From: Chloroflexota bacterium
Lineage (GTDB): Bacteria > Chloroflexota > UBA11872 > VXOZ01
NCBI GenBank assembly: GCA_026710945.1
Contig: JAPOQA010000028.1
Location: 62,001-126,000 of the forward strand
DNA length: 64,000 nucleotides
Reading direction: 5' to 3'
Both the position numbers and the translations under genes were made by a program. Positions 3,427-52,100 of this stretch are shown piece by piece. Numbering within the stretch: the first letter of the stretch is position 1; each line of letters opens with the position of its first letter. The notes beneath the pieces were generated by a model. It made no database searches and was not told where the DNA came from. It worked only from the letters and a program-made list of their open reading frames with translations.

Positions 3427-3501
3427 AGCAGCCTGGCAGTGCTGGCTGCCGCGACCCAGAGATCTTCCTCAGGCACAGCCGGAACACTCACGCGAAGGGC
3501 G

Positions 3502-3674
3502 CTGACAGGGGTATGTAAATGTCATTTCGAGCGCAGCGTCGAACAGGGTTCGCGGAATCTAAAGATGCTGATTTTGCAGGGCTGTGCCTTAGATTCCGCG
3601 CTCTTAGCGAAACTCCGCTGCGCTCCGTTTGGAATGACACGTGAAGTCGATTATAGAATACCTACCCTTGTCAG
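3502..3674. mobile_element. MITE-like element family A, copy 1, with 11 bp target duplication
   Basis: 173 bp with no coding potential. The left end is CTGACAGGGGTATGTA and the right end is its inverse with two mismatches (TACCTACCCTTGTCAG). The element is flanked by a perfect 11 bp direct repeat, CGCGAAGGGCG, at 3491-3501 and 3675-3685, which is the mark of a transposition event. The inside is a long imperfect palindrome starting TGTCATTTCGAGCGCAGCG and ending GGAATGACA, with GGAATCTA and TTAGATTCC near the centre. A second copy is at 48633-48814. Target duplications of 10-13 bp are known for the IS4/IS231 group; a link to such a transposase is inference, since none is in the window. Confidence 0.85.
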
Positions 3675-3684
3675 CGCGAAGGGC

Positions 3685-16512: not shown

Positions 16513-16823
16513 TGTAAGTGCCAGGTAATACGTTGACAGAATTCGCTTTCCCGTAGAGAGTGCTACAAGGCCTTGTCATTCCGAGCGTAGCGAGGAATCT
16601 AGGATCCCAGCTCAACACACTTTCACGGTCTCAGCACTCTAGATTCCTCACTCCGCTACGCTCCGTTCGGAATGACATGTATTCAGGCAAGCACAGAGCC
16701 CTGCTCCCATGTTTCTTCTACCAAATCTGTCAAAGAATTACCTGACATTTACAGGAATGATATCCACCGTCAACCCTTCAGAATGGAATGCGAATTCTGT
16801 CAGCGAATTACTCAATACTTACA
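16513..16823. mobile_element. MITE-like element family B, copy 1 (rearranged)
   Basis: Left end TGTAAGTGCCAGGTAATACG and right end ACTCAATACTTACA (inverted TGTAAGTATTGAGT) bracket a core palindrome (16573-16680, TGTCATTCCGAGCG...GGAATGACA). A second right-end-like segment, CCTGACATTTACA, ends at 16753 and suggests a nested or partial second insertion. The right flank runs into a family C half repeat. No clean target duplication is visible, unlike copies 2 and 3. Confidence 0.65.
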
Positions 16824-16910
16824 ATTTCCGCGCACGCGGGAATCCATCTTCTCCGTGCCACGTCAACGCCGTTGCCACGAAAACACCTTTGCCACGCAGG
16901 CGCCATCGCA

Positions 16911-18035: not shown

Positions 18036-18159
18036 CTCCGACCGGAGTTATGCAAAGTTCTCCATGCTGGGAGAAGGCTGGGATGCGGGTGAAGCAGAGC
18101 TGGCCGACGAGCGAGCGTTAGCCTCCTATGCCCCCTGAATTCCGGCGTGCGCCGGGAAT

Positions 18160-18418
18160 TGTAAATGTCAGATAATTCGTTGACAGATTTGAGAACAAAA
18201 GCAACCTTTCGCAGTGTTAGACATGACTAGTACACATGTCATTCCGAACGAAGCGCAGCGAAGAGTCGCTCTTAGCGCGGAATCTAGTATGCTGAAGCCG
18301 TTAAAGTAGGGACCCTAGATTCCGCGAACAGGGTTCGACGCTTCGCTCGGAATGACATGCACCGTCAACACATCAGAATGGAAAGCGGACTCTGTCAACG
18401 AATTACTCAACACTTACA
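18160..18418. mobile_element. MITE-like element family B, copy 2
   Basis: 259 bp with ends TGTAAATGTCAGATAATTCG and the inverse of TGTAAGTGTTGAGTAATTCG, followed inwards on both sides by TTGACAGA. GGAAT lies on both sides (18155-18159, 18419-18423), consistent with a 5 bp target duplication inside a family C repeat whose end GGAATGAC is split by the insertion. The inside holds the core palindrome TGTCATTCCGAACG...CTCGGAATGACATG. No open frame is supported. Confidence 0.8.
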
Positions 18419-18507
18419 GGAATGACTGGGGCTATTCCGAGATTCTTAGAGTGGGCGAACATCGTTTGGCGAGGTATAAGAACGGAAGCTGAGAGGAAAA
18501 AGAAACC

Positions 18508-21926: not shown

Positions 21927-23603
21927 TCATCCAAGTATCGTGCCGCGCATTTCCATCGGCTGCGTCATCAGCCAGGCTCCGGTGAAGAAGAGCGCGACAA
22001 TCAAGACTGCCCACGGCAGCAGGCAGCGTATCGCCCTCGCGGCGGAGCTTTGACGGCTTCTCGCAATGCGATAGCCAGCGGTCAGTGAAACGAGCACGCC
22101 AAGTTCCAGGAGTAGCAGTTCAAGGGGCACCAGCCAGGCCTCAGGCACTATGGCAGCCAGCTCCCACTGCGGATCGCCCAGGATTGGCACACCAAAATCG
22201 GCTAGGAAACTCTGCATGACGGGAATAACCGTCAACGCGCCGATAAGAAAGTGAAAGCCATAGTGCGCCAGCCACATGCCTAAAGCAATAGGAATGAAGG
22301 CGAAGCTGAAGCGCGTGGCCGTGGCTGCCAACGTCTCGTTGCCGCCGACAAGCGCGCGGCTGGACCACGCGGCGGCGGTCACGAGCACAAAGGGCAGGGC
22401 CACCAGTCCCACGATGAAGAGTATGCCGAGCACCACGGGTTCACTGGTGACGCCGAGCTGTGTCGCCAGCCATTGCTCCAACACATAGACCGGCGCCACC
22501 ATGCCAAAGGCGTTCACAAAGGCCGCGAACACAAGCACGAAAACCAGCGCCGCTACGTCTGCGCGTTTCACTAGCGTGCCGACGCCGGAGTGCCATTGAT
22601 CCAAGCGCCTGAACTCGCTGGTGGGCGCACGCAGTTGGATGCCGACGTTATCGAAGGGACAAGCCTGGATACAGTCGAGGCAGAACGTGCAGTCCATGTT
22701 GCCGACTTTGCCTTCTTGGAAGAGCCACAGTTCGCAGCCACTTTGTACAAGTTGCAGGCCGGCGGGCATTGCTACTGATCTTGCCGGCTGGGAAGGACTC
22801 TTGGTCACCTCTCGCATACCTGCTTGAGGTCGCTGTTCGTCGGAAGATGGATTCCGCGCCCCGGCACGGGGCGAGCTTTCACGGGAATGACGGAGCAGAT
22901 GCGATACTTGCGCTTGCCGAGGTTTATCCCGTTCATCTGGATTCCGGCTTGTGCCGGAATGACGGAGGGAAGGCTCCGCTACTGGACCATACCGCCCCTT
23001 GATGCAGTCCTTTGTCGGACAGGACCCGCAGATGTCCGGCTGGCGCACCTTCACCTCCAGCGGCGACACCATGCTGTGCACAAAGTGGAACTGTCCGATA
23101 GGACAAACGTATTTGCAGAAGGCCGCGCCCTTAAAAATACCGTCTATCGCAAAGGCAGCGACAAAGTACGTTAGGGCTACCCACGCGGTGAGCCAGGGGC
23201 TCGCCCACAAGTCGAACGCCTCGTACGCCCAGAAGAAGACCAGGAGCACGCCGATTGCCAGCCACTTGCTCCGTATGAACGTCGGCCAGGGGCGGTCGGC
23301 GGGGAAGAGCTTCTTGGCCAGGCGGCGCGGCAGCATAAAAGGGCAGGCCATGCAGAAGAGGTTGCCGGCAATGAGTAACGCCAGCACAACAAAGCCCCGC
23401 CAGTGCACCCAGGGCAGCACGCCGGCGAGATTCTTCGGCGCAAGCTGCGGACCCCAAAAACCGTCGTAGAGGATGAGTGCCGATACCGCCAGCAGTACCG
23501 CCTGCATGGACGTACGGGCATGCTTCCAGCGCAAGAAGCGCCCGACGACAGGCACGTTGAGGAGATCGCGCTGTCTCGTTTGCTGGTTGCGCAACACGGC
23601 CAC
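21927..23603 (-). CDS. FixG/NapH-like membrane 4Fe-4S protein with in-frame repeat insertion
   Basis: 558 residues from a GTG at 23603, two bases after the stop of the upstream YtkA-like gene. Several membrane helices alternate with cysteine motifs: CMAC (84-87), CKYVC (163-167), CGSCPTKDC (192-200), C290 and the classical ferredoxin set CTFCLDCIQACP (305-316). Proteins of this group pass electrons or reduce metals in the membrane; FixG/CcoG helps copper delivery to cytochrome oxidase. Between C200 and C290 lies about 75 residues of low-complexity sequence, including peptides (214-223, 238-254) encoded by the dispersed family C repeat. The frame stays open through it. No cbb3 oxidase genes are present. 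Confidence 0.82.
   Translation of the reverse strand: MAVLRNQQTRQRDLLNVPVVGRFLRWKHARTSMQAVLLAVSALILYDGFWGPQLAPKNLAGVLPWVHWRGFVVLALLIAGNLFCMACPFMLPRRLAKKLFPADRPWPTFIRSKWLAIGVLLVFFWAYEAFDLWASPWLTAWVALTYFVAAFAIDGIFKGAAFCKYVCPIGQFHFVHSMVSPLEVKVRQPDICGSCPTKDCIKGRYGPVAEPSLRHSGTSRNPDERDKPRQAQVSHLLRHSRESSPRAGARNPSSDEQRPQAGMREVTKSPSQPARSVAMPAGLQLVQSGCELWLFQEGKVGNMDCTFCLDCIQACPFDNVGIQLRAPTSEFRRLDQWHSGVGTLVKRADVAALVFVLVFAAFVNAFGMVAPVYVLEQWLATQLGVTSEPVVLGILFIVGLVALPFVLVTAAAWSSRALVGGNETLAATATRFSFAFIPIALGMWLAHYGFHFLIGALTVIPVMQSFLADFGVPILGDPQWELAAIVPEAWLVPLELLLLELGVLVSLTAGYRIARSRQSSAARAIRCLLPWAVLIVALFFTGAWLMTQPMEMRGTILG
22846..22965. repeat. two family C repeats inside the FixG-like gene
   Basis: 22846-22893 starts GATGGATTCCGCGCC and ends ACGGGAATGACGG; 22936-22965 is TCTGGATTCCGGCTTG then TGCCGGAATGACGG. 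They share the GATTCC...GGAATGACGG pattern of the intergenic repeats and are translated on the minus strand as RHSRESSPRAGARNPSS and RHSGTSRNPD. Confidence 0.85.
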
Positions 23604-23605
23604 GT

Positions 23606-24052
23606 CTAATTGCCATCCTTGGGCTTATCGGACTTCATGCCCATCTTTATCTCGCCCTGCACGCCTTTCAGGTCAATGCGCCGCTCGGCGGTGGCGCCGT
23701 TGGCAAACGTGGCGCGCACAATGATGACCCAATCGCCGCCCATAGTGAACCTGAAGCCCTCGGTGACGTACTTGCCCGCGCCGCGGGCTTCAGTCCCAAC
23801 GATGACCGGCTGCATACCGGCGTGGGTCATGGTGCCCTTCACCAGAATGGTGGCGTCCGAAACGGGATTGCCTGCTATGTCGCGGACTTGCAGGGTGATG
23901 ACGGCGTCACCCACCGCTGCCGGTTCGGGCGAGATCGACAATACGGTTACGTCAAGGTTGCCGCCCTGCTCGGCGCGCGGGCCGCATGCGCTGAGAACAA
24001 GCGCTCCCAGTATAGCGATGAAGATGACGCAAGTCGTCCGTGCAAAATTCAT
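23606..24052 (-). CDS. YtkA/FixH-like lipoprotein
   Basis: 148 residues from the ATG at 24052, preceded by CGGAAACT; a longer frame to 24475 lacks any leader and is unlikely. The signal peptide TTCVIFIAILGALVLSAC ends in a lipobox cysteine at C23. The rest is a YtkA-like beta-sandwich: VLSISPEPAAVGDAVITLQV, GNPVSDATILVKGTMTHAGM and GGDWVIIVRATFANG. Such domains are found in FixH and in copper-handling lipoproteins. The gene runs directly into the FixG-like gene (two-base gap), so the two are almost certainly co-translated and act together at the membrane, probably in metal or redox handling. Confidence 0.82.
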   Translation of the reverse strand: MNFARTTCVIFIAILGALVLSACGPRAEQGGNLDVTVLSISPEPAAVGDAVITLQVRDIAGNPVSDATILVKGTMTHAGMQPVIVGTEARGAGKYVTEGFRFTMGGDWVIIVRATFANGATAERRIDLKGVQGEIKMGMKSDKPKDGN

Positions 24053-29767: not shown

Positions 29768-29982
29768 TATCGCTTGTTGGCCGGCCGCGACGAGAGGCAG
29801 TTCTTGTGGCAAGAACAATAGGCAACGTCAAGGCGTCCCACGGCCAACCTTCACAATTGCGTATTTCAATTTGCGTCCTTTGGCGCCGTGCATTGCTATG
29901 GGAGTGAGCGCGCTAACAGGGTCGCAAACAAGATGTGAAAGTGAATGTGTAGCGAGAGTTGCGGAAGAGGAGGGTCTGAGAG

Positions 29983-31461
29983 ATGGCACTGACGCGTCGA
30001 TCGCTTCTTGGTTTGATTGGGGGCGTGCCGCTGGCGGCAAGTATCGCGTCCGGTTGCGGCTTCTTTGGGGACTTGGTTGGAGGGGATTCCGGCGATAAAA
30101 CGGTAAACGTAGCCGTCTTCCTCCCCCAGGGAGAAGGAGCTAATTTCCAGGCCGCGCAGGCCGGTAACATCCTTGCCAGCCTCCAAACCGCCGCTAACGA
30201 AATCAACGATCAGAATCTCGGATTCCAAATGGAGGTAAAGCTGACGGTCGTGCCGCCGGGGCCCGTCTTTAATTTTGCCGCCTTCTTTGGCACGAGCGAC
30301 GCAAACGCGGAGCCCACGCCGACCCCTTTCAGTCCGATTGCCGAAACGCTAAACGAGGCGGCGGCAAGCGGACAGTTGGCCAGCGGCGACCCGCTGCCGG
30401 ACGTCTTGATGATCAGCAATATGAACGAGTTACCGCTCCTCTACCAGGAAGGCATCATCGAACCGTTCGAGCAGGCAACCAGAGTAGAAGGCAGTATCGA
30501 TCTCTCGGCATTTGCGCCCGGCGCCTTGGAAGCGGTGAGTTGGCAGGGGCAAGCCCTCGTTCTGCCGCTCTCCAGTTCCATCAACACACTTACGTACGAT
30601 TCAGAGCTCTTTGCGGATGCGGGTGTTGGCACACCCGGCAACGAATGGACGTGGCTCGATATGATCGAGGCGGGTAAGCGCCTCACCTACAGCGACGACA
30701 CAGGAGCGCAGTGGGGGACATATGCGCATGCTTCAGTCCCGCTACTCTTGAGCCTTATCTGGAGTCACGGCGGCGAGGTGTTCGGCTCCCAAGGCGGAGA
30801 CGTGCGCATTGCCGAACCGGAGGCAATCAAGGGCATAGAGCTTTGGCGCGATATGATTACGTTCCATCAAATTGCGCCAAATCCGCCGCAAGGCACCTTC
30901 GCCTTCCTACGCGCCGGTCGCGACGGCATGGAAGTGGTCAGCTTCGACCAACTGCCCCAGAGAGGCGGCGGCGGTGGCGGCGTTCGGCCCAGCGAAACGG
31001 CGCGCCTGGCTACTGCCGTACGCTCAGGCGGGGGGCAGGGACTTGGCCCGGAGCGCATTCATGCCGCGGCCATGCCGGTGGATGCACGGCAGGCAACGTG
31101 GGTATCACCGGTGGCAGGACTGGGCGTCGGCGCGCAAGCGAAAGACACCGGCCTGGCAGCGCAGGCGGCAGTGGTGCTGGCGCGGGAACTCTCGCAGTTG
31201 CCCGTTACGTTCTTCGGCTATCCAGTCTACAACGTCTCCGGTGAACGCATCAAGCAGGTGAGGCCGAGTCTGAGGATTGAAGACGCCACGATTATTTCCG
31301 ACGCTCTCGGCTATAGCCGGGGCGTGCCTCCCCTGCTTTCGCCGTACTTGCAGTCGCTCTTCCAGCAGCATCTCATGGCGCCGGTCTTGAGCGGTGAGAG
31401 AAATGTGGCCGACGCGGCGCACCAGTTGTCGATAGCCATGCAGGAAATGCTGCGGCAATAA
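29983..31461 (+). CDS. ABC-type extracellular solute-binding lipoprotein, paralogue 1
   Basis: 492 residues from the ATG at 29983, with GAGGAGGGTCTGAG upstream. A twin-arginine leader TRRSLLGLIGGVPLAASIASGC ends in a lipobox cysteine, so the protein is likely exported folded and lipid-anchored. The body is a family 1 (sugar-type) binding protein: FEQATRVEGSIDLSAFAPGALEAVSWQGQALVLPLS, WTWLDMIEAGKRLTY and GTYAHASVPLLLSLIWSHGGEVF. A glycine run (30964-30981) interrupts the C-lobe. About 73% similar by eye to paralogue 2 at 32257. No permease or ATPase gene is nearby. Confidence 0.85.
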   Translation: MALTRRSLLGLIGGVPLAASIASGCGFFGDLVGGDSGDKTVNVAVFLPQGEGANFQAAQAGNILASLQTAANEINDQNLGFQMEVKLTVVPPGPVFNFAAFFGTSDANAEPTPTPFSPIAETLNEAAASGQLASGDPLPDVLMISNMNELPLLYQEGIIEPFEQATRVEGSIDLSAFAPGALEAVSWQGQALVLPLSSSINTLTYDSELFADAGVGTPGNEWTWLDMIEAGKRLTYSDDTGAQWGTYAHASVPLLLSLIWSHGGEVFGSQGGDVRIAEPEAIKGIELWRDMITFHQIAPNPPQGTFAFLRAGRDGMEVVSFDQLPQRGGGGGGVRPSETARLATAVRSGGGQGLGPERIHAAAMPVDARQATWVSPVAGLGVGAQAKDTGLAAQAAVVLARELSQLPVTFFGYPVYNVSGERIKQVRPSLRIEDATIISDALGYSRGVPPLLSPYLQSLFQQHLMAPVLSGERNVADAAHQLSIAMQEMLRQ

Positions 31462-31465
31462 ACTC

Positions 31466-31491
31466 CGGATCACTGGTGGACCAGTGATCCG
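31466..31491. terminator. perfect hairpin after solute-binding protein 1
   Basis: CGGATCACTGG (31466-31476), loop TGGA, CCAGTGATCCG (31481-31491), four bases after the stop codon. No T run follows, so termination would be rho-assisted or the hairpin may protect the mRNA end. Confidence 0.6.
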
Positions 31492-32256
31492 ACACGAGCC
31501 AGGCAAGGTCTGGCTTTGCTTCCCTCAAGAGTGGGGCAGCCGCTGTAGATTCGTGATTTGGCAAATCCTCATAACGCGACGTGCACCCGGAATACTGTTA
31601 GAAGGTGAGCGACCGTGAGGTCCTACTAAAGAGGACCCGCGGCCTGCGCTTCGCCAATGCTTCGACAGCGCCCATGTTGTGCCTGTCGAAGCATTAGCTC
31701 TTAAGGGTCTTGCGGCTCCCAACCGAATCGAACGAGCGGTGATTGCGCACACTACCGATCGGGCACTCAATTCGACTCAGCGAATTTCGACCATACAATG
31801 CCTTTCAATGCCACGGGTGCGATGGATAGCAATGTGGTGGCAAGTCTACCTTGCAGCGGCCTGAATTGGCCCAGTGTTGCCGATTGCGCCGTATCCCGCC
31901 GGAAAGCGATGGCGCGAATCGTCGCTAAGGCATGTTCAAAGTCCCTTCGTCGTCACATTTACCTTCACATTCTCTTGACAATTGAGCAGTAGCATGGGGA
32001 TGAGTTGGCAAGCGCCGCGCGGCGCGCGGGTTGCCCTTCGGGGCTTGATTGCCCAGAGTGCTGCTGGAGAGTGTCGGTAAGTTCACTCGTCATCTTGTGG
32101 TTCGCCATCTGCGCGCAAGCAAACCAAGACGTAAGCGTGGGGCGCAAATGGGCTTTCATCGTGAGGAACTTTTGAATTCCACAAGACGAGCGGCAGCAGA
32201 GGTTGCTTTACATAGGACACGTGTAGCGCGAAAGATTGCAAAATGAGAGGTATGTG
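31492..32256. other. gap between the two binding-protein genes
   Basis: 765 bp without a supported gene. A perfect 13 bp inverted repeat, AATGCTTCGACAG at 31656-31668 and its complement at 31683-31695, sits near the middle. The last 50 bp, GTGTAGCGCGAAAG onwards, resemble the leader of the first binding-protein gene (GTGTAGCGAGAG), so the duplication included the upstream region. Confidence 0.5.
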
Positions 32257-33750
32257 ATGGCGATGACGCGTCGTTCGTTTCTTGGCCTGGTCGGTGGCGT
32301 GCCGGTAGTGGCAAGTCTCGCCGCCGGCTGCGGTTTTTTTGACGGCCTAGTGGGCGGAGATTCCGGAGACAAGACGGTAAACGTTGCGGTTTTTCTGCCC
32401 CAGGGGCAGGGGGCCAACTTTCAAGCTGCACAAGCCGGCAACATCCTTGCCAGCCTCCAGTCCGCTGCCAATGAGATTAACGATCAGAATCTTGGCTTCC
32501 AAATGGAGGTCAACCTAACGGTCGTGCCCCCGGGGCCGAACCCTAACTTTGGCGCCTTCTTTGGCGCTGCTGCTAACGCTGAACCGACGCCGACCCCGTT
32601 CAGCCCGATTGCCGAAACACTCAATGACGCGGCTGCGAGCGGGGAGTTGGCCGGTGGGACCCCATTCCCAGACTTGCTGTTGATCAGCAACATGAATGAG
32701 CTGCCGCTGCTTTACGATGAAGGCGTCATCGAGCCGTTTGAGCAGGCCACGCGGGTGGAAGGCAGCATCGATCTGTCGGACTTCGCTCCCGGTGCGATGG
32801 AATCGGTCCGTTGGCAAGGGCAAGCCCTTGCCTTGCCGCTTTCCAGCACTATCAATACGCTCACCTATGATGCGGACCTCTTGGCCAACGACGGTGTGGC
32901 GGCGCCGGACGGTGGGTGGACCTGGCCCGAGATGATCGAGGCAGGCAAGCGCCTCACCTACAGCAACGAATCGGGTTCCCAATGGGGTACCTATGCGCAT
33001 GCCTCGGTGCCGATGTTGCTCAGCATGATTTGGAGCCACGGCGGCGAGGTGTTTGACGCCCAGAATGGCGCCGTGCGGCTGGCTGAACCAAATGCCGTCA
33101 AAGCCATCGAGCTCTGGCGGGATATGATTGTCGTACACAACATTGCGCCAAATCCGCCGGAGGGCACTTTTGCCTTCATGCGCGCGAATCGCAATGGCAT
33201 GCAGGTAGTCTCCTTCGACCAAGCACCCGGCGGCGGCGGGGGCCGTGGCGGTGGCGGCGGCGGAGGAGGCGCGCAGCCCAGCGATACGGCGCGCTTGGCG
33301 ACTGCCGTGCGCTCCGGCGGGAACCAAGGACTAGGTTCGGAGCAGATCCATGCCGCGCCGTTGCCGACGGACTTAGGGCAGGCGACGTGGGTTTCCCCTG
33401 TGGCCGGGCTGAGCGTGGGGGCGCAGGCCAAGGATACTGGCCTGGCAGCGCAGGCGGCGCTGGTGCTATCCCGAGAACTCGCGCAACTGCCGGTTACGTT
33501 CTTTGGCTATCCGGTTTACAGCGTAACGGGCGATCGGATTAAGCAGGTGAGGCCAAGCCTAAGAATAGAGGACGCCAATATCATCGCAGATGCCCTCGGC
33601 TATAGTCGAGGCATTCCGCCCTTGATCGCCCCCTATCTACAGTCACTCTTCCAACAGCATCTCATGGCGCCGGTCCTGAGCGGTCAGACCACGGTATCCG
33701 ATGCTGCCGAAGAGCTGTCATTCGCGCTCCAGGAAATGCTGCGGCAGTAA
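32257..33750 (+). CDS. ABC-type extracellular solute-binding lipoprotein, paralogue 2
   Basis: 497 residues from the ATG at 32257 after GAGAGGTATGTG. Same architecture as the gene at 29983: leader TRRSFLGLVGGVPVVASLAAGC with twin Arg and lipobox, then a type 1 binding fold with WTWPEMIEAGKRLTYSNESG, GTYAHASVPMLLSMIWSHGG and QLPVTFFGYPVYSVTGDRIKQVRPSLRIED. The glycine run is longer here (33229-33273, GGGGGRGGGGGGGG) and encoded mostly by GGC/GGT/GGA. The pair arose by tandem duplication. Without a transporter beside them they may serve permeases encoded elsewhere or act as surface receptors. Confidence 0.85.
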   Translation: MAMTRRSFLGLVGGVPVVASLAAGCGFFDGLVGGDSGDKTVNVAVFLPQGQGANFQAAQAGNILASLQSAANEINDQNLGFQMEVNLTVVPPGPNPNFGAFFGAAANAEPTPTPFSPIAETLNDAAASGELAGGTPFPDLLLISNMNELPLLYDEGVIEPFEQATRVEGSIDLSDFAPGAMESVRWQGQALALPLSSTINTLTYDADLLANDGVAAPDGGWTWPEMIEAGKRLTYSNESGSQWGTYAHASVPMLLSMIWSHGGEVFDAQNGAVRLAEPNAVKAIELWRDMIVVHNIAPNPPEGTFAFMRANRNGMQVVSFDQAPGGGGGRGGGGGGGGAQPSDTARLATAVRSGGNQGLGSEQIHAAPLPTDLGQATWVSPVAGLSVGAQAKDTGLAAQAALVLSRELAQLPVTFFGYPVYSVTGDRIKQVRPSLRIEDANIIADALGYSRGIPPLIAPYLQSLFQQHLMAPVLSGQTTVSDAAEELSFALQEMLRQ

Positions 33751-39872: not shown

Positions 39873-39949
39873 GGTCTATGGGCAAGTCTGAGTTGCCCAT
39901 CATTGAGAGTTCTGCTCGCACACTCTGGATTCCTCGCTGCGCTCGGAAT

Positions 39950-40217
39950 TGTAAATGTCAGGTATTTCGTTGACAGATTCGGCACGAGTATTCGGTGGTT
40001 CTGTCGTCGTGAGCGACCACGACACCTGTCATTCCGAACGGAGCGCAGCGAAGTGTCGCTCTTAGCGCGGAATCTAGAGTGCTGAAGCCAGTGTACTGTG
40101 TGAAGCATGGACCCTAGATTCCGCGAACAGGGTTCGACGCTTCGCTCGGAATGACATGTACGTTCGACACAGTCCAGTGAGTAGAAGTTTTTGTCAGCGA
40201 ATTACTCAACGCTTACA
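39950..40217. mobile_element. MITE-like element family B, copy 3
   Basis: 268 bp, ends TGTAAATGTCAGGTATTTCG and the inverse of TGTAAGCGTTGAGTAATTCG. GGAAT flanks it on both sides (39945-39949 and 40218-40222). Left of it, GATTCCTCGCTGCGCTCGG is the half arm of another core palindrome, so the element has inserted into the GGAATGACA end of that older repeat. The inner palindrome (TGTCATTCCGAACGGAGCGC to CTCGGAATGACATG, about 40028-40157) closely matches copy 2. Confidence 0.82.
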
Positions 40218-40321
40218 GGAATGACACGAACTGTAAATGCGCTGTGTGCAAGTGCGGCCGTTTGGGAGATAGACACGTGTGCAATCGTGGTGCAATTGGT
40301 ATACTAGATCAAGAATTTTGC

Positions 40322-48176: not shown

Positions 48177-48649
48177 TCCTGTTCTTCGATGAGGATATGG
48201 GCACGGCCATACCCAGGTTTCTAAGGGGCGCTGATAGGGATGTAGATGTTCGCTGGCTCCGCGCGCAGTTTCCTAACGAGAGTGACCCACGCCGCCAGGA
48301 CGTAGAGTGGTTAGCGGAGGCGGGACGACAGGGCTGGTTAGTCATCTCGTGCAACAAGCGAATGCTCTCGGTGATATATGAACGCCAAGCGATTCTTCAG
48401 CACAAAGTAGGCATTGTCTACTTTGCAAGTGGTCAGGTCGGGCGGCTCCCGATGATGCGCGCGCTTCTCCGCAAATGGGACTGGCTCAAGGCTGCGGACC
48501 TATCTGAACCTCGACCGTTTGCCTACTACCTCTATGCCAGCGGTCGGACTCGGCAGCTAAGCCTCGAGACTAGGCGAGTACCGATTCAGGGCCCGGAGTC
48601 TGCCGGTGCCAACTGCCCTACCCCCGGTCGGGCTGACAGGGGTATGTAG
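48173..48649 (+). CDS. PIN-like toxin candidate (DUF5615 type), tail altered by MITE insertion
   Basis: 158 residues from a GTG at 48173 that overlaps the DUF433 gene stop. FFDEDMG at the N-terminus supplies the first acidic residues of the PIN-like fold, followed by WLAEAGRQGWLVISCNKRML, where family members usually carry a D-rich T-x-D-x-D motif; here the acids are replaced by CNK. The last five residues (ADRGM) and the stop lie inside the A element at 48633. Without the insertion the frame would run on into a 22-residue tail ending TAASS. The protein is probably an inactive or weak RNase, or the active site differs. Confidence 0.75.
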   Translation: MILFFDEDMGTAIPRFLRGADRDVDVRWLRAQFPNESDPRRQDVEWLAEAGRQGWLVISCNKRMLSVIYERQAILQHKVGIVYFASGQVGRLPMMRALLRKWDWLKAADLSEPRPFAYYLYASGRTRQLSLETRRVPIQGPESAGANCPTPGRADRGM

Positions 48650-48814
48650 ATGTCATTCCGAGCGCAGCGTCGAACAGGGTTCGCGGAATCTAGGGCCATG
48701 CCACATGTCGCAAGAAAGGCTCAGCACCTTAGATTCCGCGCTCTTAGCGACACTTCGCTGCGCTTCGTTCGGAATGACATGTGAAGTCGATTATAGAATA
48801 CATACCCCTGTCAG
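48633..48814. mobile_element. MITE-like element family A, copy 2, with 11 bp target duplication
   Basis: 182 bp. The ends CTGACAGGGGTATGTA and its exact inverse complement (48799-48814) form 16 bp perfect terminal inverted repeats. An 11 bp direct repeat CCCCGGTCGGG flanks it at 48622-48632 and 48815-48825. The inside is the core palindrome TGTCATTCCGAGCGCAGCG...GGAATGACATG. It sits exactly between two convergent genes and its ends supply their stop codons (TAG for the PIN-like gene, TGA for the creatininase gene). Confidence 0.9.
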
Positions 48815-49704
48815 CCCCGGTCGGGGATGTGCTGGTTGGCATGCCAGAAGGAATCTTCAGGCACCGGCTCCGGGGACTGCTGCATCGAGTTGAAGTCCTT
48901 GAGCGCCGGGCGCACGTCGTCTTCCCAGATGTCCTCAATGTCGGCAAACGTCAGAGTCTTGCGCGTCGGCTGCACACGGTCGTACTCCGCCACAAGTTCG
49001 TTAGCGGCTGCGCCGAGGCTTGCCACGATGTCGGCACTCATGCGTTCGCCGGCGCGGCGGTCGGATGCAGTGGCGTCATCGCCCATGGCAAAGTGCGGCC
49101 CCGGGGTACCGGCCGGCGGAATGCGGGTGAGGTCCACGCCGCCCGGCGTCACCGCCCACAGCAGCGATGTCTCGCCGCGGCCGGCGTGACCGCCCATGCC
49201 CGCATCGTCCTCGAAGCGCGACTCTTCCGTGCCCATGCCAATCGGCATATGGCAGTGCAGCCGGGTCGCCACGTGCCGCTGCATGATCTCCAAGAACACC
49301 GGAATGTCCGGGCTATGGGGGCCGGCGTGACCGGAGAAGATGATGGCGCCATGAAAGCCATGGGCGTCCACGGCACGGATGTGGTAGCTCATGTTCTTGA
49401 AGAACATCCACGGCGGGATGGACGTGAGCCACGTGCGGTTATTGCCGATGGTGCGGTCCCCCCAGTTGGCGGACGTCCCCGCCTCGTGATTGTGCCAATA
49501 CGTGGTCGGCATCACGATCCCGCCGTATTGTTCCGCCGCCTGGCGCATATGGCCTTCGGGCCGCAACGCATCACACCCCACCACGTTCTGCGGCCCGTGC
49601 GGCTCGCACAACCCATACGGCATGTACACCACCGGAAACGCCGCCACCGCCGCTTCCAACTCATCCCGGAACATCAATTCCCAACGCACTTCTCGCTGTT
49701 TCAT
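48811..49704 (-). CDS. creatininase family protein
   Basis: 297 residues from the ATG at 49704, which has GAGGAG nine bases upstream; an ATG at 49710 is too close to it. The family metal site is seen in VYMPYGLCEPHGPQNVVGCD and in GGHAGRGETSLLW, with IIFSGHAGPHS between. Members are metal-dependent amidohydrolases such as creatininase, mycofactocin peptidase MftE and formamide hydrolases. The stop TGA lies in the inverted end of the A element; before the insertion a TAG in the same place gave the same C-terminus (ANQHIPDRG). No substrate clue from the neighbours. Confidence 0.85.
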   Translation of the reverse strand: MKQREVRWELMFRDELEAAVAAFPVVYMPYGLCEPHGPQNVVGCDALRPEGHMRQAAEQYGGIVMPTTYWHNHEAGTSANWGDRTIGNNRTWLTSIPPWMFFKNMSYHIRAVDAHGFHGAIIFSGHAGPHSPDIPVFLEIMQRHVATRLHCHMPIGMGTEESRFEDDAGMGGHAGRGETSLLWAVTPGGVDLTRIPPAGTPGPHFAMGDDATASDRRAGERMSADIVASLGAAANELVAEYDRVQPTRKTLTFADIEDIWEDDVRPALKDFNSMQQSPEPVPEDSFWHANQHIPDRG

Positions 49705-51705: not shown

Positions 51706-52100
51706 TGAAGCTGAGGGGGGGGGCAGCGGATTAGCTGAGGCCTCTCGTGGGCCAATTGGGAATTCTGGATTTGACGGCAGGCGACTCCACCGTCACTTCC
51801 GCAGGGCTGAACACGAGGAGGAAAGAGAAGATGGATTCCCGTTTTCACGGGAATGACGGACAGATTGGCCTTCTCTTAGTAGCGCGGGGGCTCGTCCCCC
51901 GCTCCTGGGTGGGCCTGTGCTCTGTTCGAGGGAAGCATTCTGGAGATAGTCAGTGGGCCGTTGGTCACGTGGTGAAGAGAAGATGGATTCCCGTTTTCAC
52001 GGGAATGACGGAAGGAAGGCATTTCCTTCGTATTGACGGAGTTGGGCACGCGAAAATGACGAAAATCAATGTTTTCGCTTAGAGATAAGGATTGCAGGGC
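51706..52100. repeat. gap with two identical family C repeats and one family E repeat
   Basis: A 37 bp unit starting AGAGAAGATGGATTCCCG and ending GGGAATGACGGA occurs twice without change (51824-51860 and 51976-52012), 152 bp apart. A family E palindrome lies between them at 51879-51904. No coding sequence supported. Confidence 0.8.

What the first reader, a model, noticed from the sequence alone, without database searches (positions are those of the whole stretch)
22846..22965. Dispersed intergenic repeat in frame within a 4Fe-4S membrane protein
Two family C repeats, otherwise intergenic, lie inside the FixG-like gene and are translated as RHSGTSRNPD and RHSRESSPRAGARNPSS. They fall between CGSCPTKDC and the C290/CTFCLDC motifs, in about 75 residues that have no counterpart expected in FixG/NapH proteins, and the frame stays open. 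This parallels Rickettsia palindromic elements that enter genes and yield tolerated peptide insertions. It would be a case of new protein sequence born from a repeat.
Basis: partly seen in the sequence, partly recalled or inferred. Interest (0 to 1): 0.8.

Follow-up and report, generated by a model that had tools for sequence, protein, structure and literature searches.

The report
REP palindromes translated inside protein loop
Short mobile-looking DNA palindromes that pepper this uncultured Chloroflexota genome have landed, in frame, in a flexible loop of an iron-sulfur membrane protein and of at least a dozen other conserved proteins (among them the DNA-repair protein UvrA), a known but rarely documented route by which genome repeats become protein.

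Summary
Gene 23603-21927 (-) encodes a 558-aa FixG/NapH-like polyferredoxin. Two palindromic repeats (22938-22964 and 22848-22892) lie in frame between its two cysteine clusters. The short copy belongs to the known CGTC-1 REP family (tag, 8-bp stem, 4-nt loop, CCA tail), which Di Nocera 2013 equates with Neisseria dRS3 and Rickettsia RPE-6. So the Rickettsia parallel is apt.

Two corrections. (1) The repeats are not otherwise intergenic: 14 of 100 exact copies in this genome and 18 of 57 in a genus-mate lie inside predicted genes (UvrA, MoeA, GalE, MidA, GT2 and others). That is far below random, but far above five other repeat families. Hydrophilic registers (HSxxSxNP, DSRxxGND) are used in 12 of 14 gene families. 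(2) The loop was permissive beforehand. Gemmatimonadota homologues carry unrelated loops, mostly 28-90 aa. All five genus members with the gene have 81-160-aa loops mosaic of repeats, most with a second family (HPHPGPLPQGRG). A Planctomycetota homologue captured that second family independently in the same loop.

The repeats are the best-conserved DNA in the loop (66/72 versus 31/45 for the spacer), which suggests homogenisation or DNA-level constraint. Mode of mobility and any peptide function remain unproven.

The parts
21927..23603 (-). FixG/NapH-like 4Fe-4S polyferredoxin membrane protein, 558 aa
   Evidence: ORF; weak NCBIfam NapH/MauN match TIGR02163 over residues 142-200, no Pfam match; 25-homologue alignment with invariant Cys84/87/163/167/192/195/200/290/305/308/311/315
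22740..23000 (-). expanded loop (residues 202-288, 87 aa between the DCI and GCEL motifs); 7-15 aa in many homologues
   Evidence: AlphaFold2 residues 211-295 pLDDT <50, almost without regular secondary structure
22938..22964 (-). CGTC-1 REP: CGTC + 8-bp stem ATTCCGGC/GCCGGAAT + loop ACAA + CCA; translated RHSGTSRNP
   Evidence: folds at -14.5 kcal/mol, z -4.7
22848..22892 (-). long variant of the same repeat (CGTCATTCC...GGAATCCA enclosing an inner CGCCCC/GGGGCG hairpin); translated RHSRESSPRAGARNP
   Evidence: same long type intergenic elsewhere in the genome (e.g. G000:C3:10038-10079)
22893..22937 (-). 45-nt spacer between the two repeats, far less conserved than the repeats (31/45 identical to G003)
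23004..23030 (-). first cysteine cluster CGSCPTKDC (C192, C195, C200) just before the loop
22659..22736 (-). second cysteine cluster C290 ... CTFCLDCIQAC (C305-C315) after the loop
51834..51857 (-). intergenic CGTC-1 REP copy
51986..52009 (-). intergenic CGTC-1 REP copy

Best explanation
The segment is a pair of CGTC-tagged REP palindromes, one of the canonical CGTC-1 type and one long variant. They were inserted in frame into a structurally permissive, probably exposed loop between the two iron-sulfur cysteine clusters of a FixG/NapH-like membrane protein. Shown: the short repeat belongs to a 100-copy dispersed family, the loop holds repeats in all five genus species that have the gene, the frame stays open and the rest of the gene is under purifying selection. 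Inferred: most insertions into genes are lost by selection. The survivors keep the reading frame, sit in loops and mostly read the palindrome in one of its two hydrophilic registers (HSGESRNP on one strand, DSRFRGND on the other). Once inside, copies serve as homologous patches for tandem duplication, deletion and sequence exchange with other genomic copies, so the loop grows and shrinks between species. The resulting peptide is most likely a tolerated, disordered, functionally neutral insertion, not a new functional domain.
For: The 23-mer CGTC-1 pattern gives 101 copies in G000 and 0 for the reversed control. Of 100 copies examined, 93 have the CGTC tag, 95 a perfect 8-bp stem and 94 a CCA tail, as in the published family definition (PMC3733652). 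Genus-mates have loops of 147, 160, 111 and 129 aa with the same repeats in the same register. Many other homologues have loops of 7-15 aa. AlphaFold2 gives pLDDT <50 for residues 211-295. Genome-wide only 14/100 (G000) and 18/57 (G001) exact copies are in genes, against about 70 and 43 expected (P ~1e-30 and 2e-12). Twelve of 14 interior gene families use the hydrophilic registers (P = 6e-4 under equal use of the five open registers). UvrA shows the same thing: inserts of 147 and 100 residues fall between residues 261/263 and 629/634 of a solved UvrA chain. MidA orthologues show intact and decayed copies at one site.
Against: No transcript or protein data. No precise empty site or target duplication could be defined, because the loop differs too much between species. 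The inside-gene calls rest on a home-made gene caller; Pfam supports 12 of the 14 gene families, not FixG (known from homologues) or L331. Repeats are better conserved than the surrounding loop, which plain neutrality with point-mutation decay does not predict.
Confidence: 0.85

Rival explanations
1. The repeats inside genes are maintained because the palindrome does something as DNA or mRNA (protein-binding or gyrase site, mRNA hairpin slowing translation or protecting the transcript); the peptide is a by-product.
For: Between window and G003 the repeats match at 66/72 positions, the spacer at 31/45 and four-fold core sites at 57% (P = 4e-6 against the spacer rate). Differences fall mainly in the loops. 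The short copy folds with z = -4.7. The HPHPGPLPQGRG element differs at only 1-2 of 36 nt between species.
Against: Copies decay in MidA of G000 and G005. Copies are missing or rearranged in FixG of other species. Homogenisation from other genomic copies explains the same pattern. Against the overall core nucleotide identity (82%) the excess is weak (P = 0.02).
Confidence: 0.2
2. The inserted peptide is functional (for example a regulatory or interaction segment) and kept by selection on the protein.
For: Every genus species with the gene keeps a long hydrophilic loop. UvrA of all five also keeps inserts.
Against: Loop length varies 81-160 aa. Amino-acid sequence outside the repeats is poorly conserved. 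The same peptides sit in unrelated proteins. Homologues have as few as 7 aa.
Confidence: 0.1
3. The loop is an old low-complexity linker unrelated to mobile repeats, and the resemblance to intergenic repeats is compositional.
For: Gemmatimonadota sister homologues have 28-90-aa linkers without recognisable CGTC repeats.
Against: Exact 23-mer matches have an expected number near zero. Two different dispersed families sit in the loop in genus-mates. The same families are intergenic elsewhere.
Confidence: 0.03

Closest known systems
CGTC-1 REP family (Di Nocera et al. 2013, PMC3733652), including Neisseria dRS3
   Same: CGTC tag, 8-bp stem starting AT, 4-nt loop, CCA tail; mostly intergenic; some copies inside genes; REP-decorated uvrA genes are reported there too
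   Different: Host is Chloroflexota, not among the five phyla listed there for CGTC repeats; orthologous gene sites are shared by several species; long inner-hairpin variant
Rickettsia palindromic elements, RPE-6 (CGTC-1) and RPE-4 (CGTC-4)
   Same: In-frame palindromes in genes for conserved proteins; RPE-6 is classed in the same CGTC-1 family by PMC3733652
   Different: A 3.5-Mb genome, not a reduced intracellular one; unrelated host; several repeat families mixed in one loop
GTAG REPs and RAYT transposases
   Same: GTAG palindromes (GTAGCGCGGGGGCTTGTCCCCCGC) coexist in this genome
   Different: 57 of 57 exact copies in sampled DNA are intergenic; CGTC REPs have no dedicated transposase according to PMC3733652
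NapH/FixG/CcoG polyferredoxin proteins
   Same: Membrane helices, cysteine clusters, weak NapH/MauN profile match
   Different: Match far below the family cut-off; no Pfam family; expanded loop

Membership tests
CGTC-1 REP | CGTC tag at one end | tested here: met
   Both window copies begin CGTC; 93/100 genome copies
CGTC-1 REP | 8-bp stem with AT first and 4-nt loop | tested here: met
   Short copy ATTCCGGC-ACAA-GCCGGAAT; 95/100 perfect. The long window copy does not fit this and is filed only as a variant
CGTC-1 REP | unpaired tail CCA | tested here: met
   Both copies; 94/100
CGTC-1 REP | high copy number, mostly intergenic | tested here: met
   101 copies; 85 of 100 intergenic
Protein-coding palindromic insertions (RPE-like behaviour) | in frame within a conserved, selected gene, absent from homologues | tested here: met
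Protein-coding palindromic insertions (RPE-like behaviour) | peptide actually present in the expressed protein | not testable with these tools
   Needs proteomics
RAYT-mobilised REP | cognate tyrosine transposase flanked by the repeat | not tested
NapH/FixG protein family | score above family cut-off | tested here: not met
   TIGR02163 24.6 bits against cut-off 213; hence 'FixG/NapH-like' only

The most novel reading that the evidence does not exclude
Certain protein loops are long-term capture sites for genome repeats. In this genus intragenic CGTC palindromes are refreshed or homogenised from intergenic copies, while selection for a hydrophilic register decides which survive. The same loop of the same protein independently captured repeats in another phylum (L055, Planctomycetota). 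Repeat capture would then be a continuing, repeatable source of new protein sequence.
Probability: 0.35. Interest if true: 0.7.

Novelty: new member of a known kind. Interest (0 to 1): 0.55.

Why it matters
It carries protein-coding palindromic repeats, best known from Rickettsia, into large-genome Chloroflexota, with five species in which the same sites can be compared. That makes two questions testable: how REPs without a known transposase enter genes, and whether reading-frame hydrophilicity and loop location decide survival. It also warns annotators that RHSGESRNP-, DSRFRGND- or HPHPGPLPQGRG-like peptides in conserved proteins can be genuine.

Tried and rejected
Two pattern searches had the wrong spacing and returned nothing; corrected. 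An earlier pattern was also mis-spaced. Rfam found no RNA family at the gene. No solved structure matched the protein by profile, and Foldseek of the model against the PDB gave nothing significant. The idea that the repeats are otherwise only intergenic was rejected. The idea that the insertion was a single recent event was rejected. Chance or compositional resemblance was rejected. The Ogata Rickettsia paper was not held, so Rickettsia statements rest on PMC3733652. One search used a query in one register and was not used for the register statistic.

Full report
WHAT WAS CHECKED. The window is G000:C28:62001-126000 of a 3.52-Mb, 70-contig genome. Its closest homologues lie in MAGs titled Chloroflexi/Chloroflexota. 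The gene at 23603-21927 (-) encodes 558 aa. Pfam finds nothing. NCBIfam gives a weak NapH/MauN match to residues 142-200, far below its cut-off. A 25-member alignment shows invariant cysteines on both sides of the segment in question. The two repeats are at 22938-22964 and 22848-22892, in frame, translated RHSGTSRNP and RHSRESSPRAGARNP. Four-fold sites of the core are only 47-57% identical between the window gene and its genus-mates, while amino acids are 82-88% identical, so the gene is under purifying selection.

WHAT THE REPEAT IS. The short copy reads CGTC-ATTCCGGC-ACAA-GCCGGAAT-CCA. Di Nocera et al. (PMC3733652) define CGTC-1 REPs by a CGTC tag, an 8-bp stem, a 4-nt loop and mostly a CCA tail. 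They equate CGTC-1 with Neisseria dRS3 and R. conorii RPE-6. Among 100 exact copies examined in this genome, 93 have CGTC, 95 a perfect stem and 94 CCA. The strict pattern has 101 copies here, 56-137 in five genus-mates, 129 in one genome of another family of the class, and none in several others. The reversed control is always 0. The long copy is a variant with an inner hairpin that also occurs intergenically.

THE LOOP IN RELATIVES. Loop length between the DCI and GCEL motifs is 7-15 aa in many homologues, 20-50 aa in some, 28-90 aa of unrelated sequence in the sister Gemmatimonadota clade (91/79 support), and 87-166 aa in the genus (the narrower definition used gives 81-160). Genus-mates G001, G003 and G004 also carry an HPHPGPLPQGRG-type stretch, encoded for example by CACCCTCACCCCGGCCCTCTCCCTCAAGGGAGAGGG. 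This second dispersed family has 103 copies in G000 and 129 in G003. On the tree the window sequence is sister to G003+G004, with G001 and then G002 outside. The simplest reading is that the HPHP element and the first CGTC copy entered before G001 split off, and that the window lineage later deleted about 65 residues holding the HPHP element (inference). A Planctomycetota homologue (L055) has a 37-aa loop that is essentially two copies of the HPHP-type repeat (TPNPSPLRGEG, PNPSPQRGEG). Its genome holds 44 exact-pattern copies, 0 in the control. That is best read as an independent capture in the same loop. AlphaFold2 gives pLDDT <50 for residues 211-295 within a mostly well-modelled helical protein.

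NOT ONLY THIS GENE. A peptide search led to UvrA in five species and to what look like a HerA-type ATPase, glycosyltransferases, methylases and others. For UvrA of this genome, alignment to a solved chain places inserts of 147 residues (244-390) between chain residues 261 and 263, and of 100 residues (757-856) between 629 and 634. The first holds four exact CGTC-1 copies in tandem units. The second holds GPSTSSGRT, encoded by a TTCGACAAGCTCAG-type repeat. For a view not biased by register, DNA around the listed exact copies was fetched from G000 and G001, and genes were called with a Markov model trained on the data. Copies inside genes: 14 of 100 and 18 of 57 (of which 1 and 4 at gene edges), with coding fractions 0.70 and 0.76. 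Insertion into genes is therefore strongly selected against or avoided. Five other dispersed families had 2 of 192 copies inside genes in G000, both in UvrA (Fisher P = 1e-5). Caveat: exact patterns miss decayed copies, such as a GTAG-like TVARGLVPR in the APH-type kinase. Merging orthologues, 14 gene families have interior copies. Twelve use HSxxSxNP or DSRxxGND, two (MoeA, a GT2 enzyme) use VIPAKAGIQ, and none use WIPAFAGMT or SFRRKPES although those are open (P = 6e-4, a post hoc test). Pfam supports the identity of 12 of the 14. In MoeA the copies lie inside the stretch aligned to the MoCF_biosynth domain.

DYNAMICS. In MidA the same site holds an intact copy in G003 and G001, a mutated one in G005 and a more decayed one in G000. 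In the window gene, by contrast, the repeats are the best-conserved part of the loop: 66/72 identical to G003, against 31/45 in the spacer and 57% at four-fold core sites (P = 4e-6 against the spacer rate, 0.02 against whole-core identity). Exchange with other genomic copies or DNA-level constraint could explain this; it is not resolved.

CONCLUSION. This is an RPE-like, in-frame REP insertion in a permissive loop, part of a genus-wide pattern. The kind is known; the host group, the shared multi-species sites, the mosaic of repeat families in one loop and the register bias are additions. Function of the peptide is not supported; tolerance is the best reading.

Noticed in passing
L202:613-4200 (G000:C49), L201, L203, L205, L206: UvrA of five species carries one to four or more tandem repeat units just before the LLFSEQFAC zinc motif, with copy number varying between species; in several of them a second insert has GPSTSSGRT-type repeats.
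   Followed up: yes
L055:3001-4491: A Planctomycetota homologue has its whole loop made of two TPNPSPxRGEG-type repeats; its genome has 44 exact-pattern copies.
   Followed up: partly
L010 and L012: Gemmatimonadota homologues have RSDASDLSDLSDRSD-like sequence in the same loop, which may be yet another repeat family; not tested.
   Followed up: no
L286:2192-3790 and L303:2157-3776: MoeA has about 100 extra residues inside its molybdopterin-binding domain, holding two CGTC-1 copies in the VIPAKAGIQ register and a GILPSPGGEGQGEG repeat.
   Followed up: partly
L288:1862-3145: An APH-type kinase holds both a CGTC-1 copy (KKMDSRLRGNDG) and what looks like a GTAG REP translated as TVARGLVPR.
   Followed up: no
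window 3501-3675, 16513-16831, 18135-18426, 39925-40225, 48632-48815: A longer (about 150-300 bp) inverted-repeat element with GTCATTCCGAGCG-type ends, MITE-like; 62 exact-pattern ends in sampled G000 DNA, none inside genes.
   Followed up: partly
window 2223, 8071, 8468, 29080, 51873, 55381, 60655, 60718: GTAG-tagged REP of the type GTAGCGCGGGGGCTTGTCCCCCGC, many copies, all intergenic in the sample.
   Followed up: partly
window 29982-33552: Tandem duplication of a gene or domain about 2.3 kb apart, 77-79% identical.
   Followed up: no
window 23606-24052: YtkA-like protein gene directly upstream, probably in one operon with the FixG-like gene.
   Followed up: no
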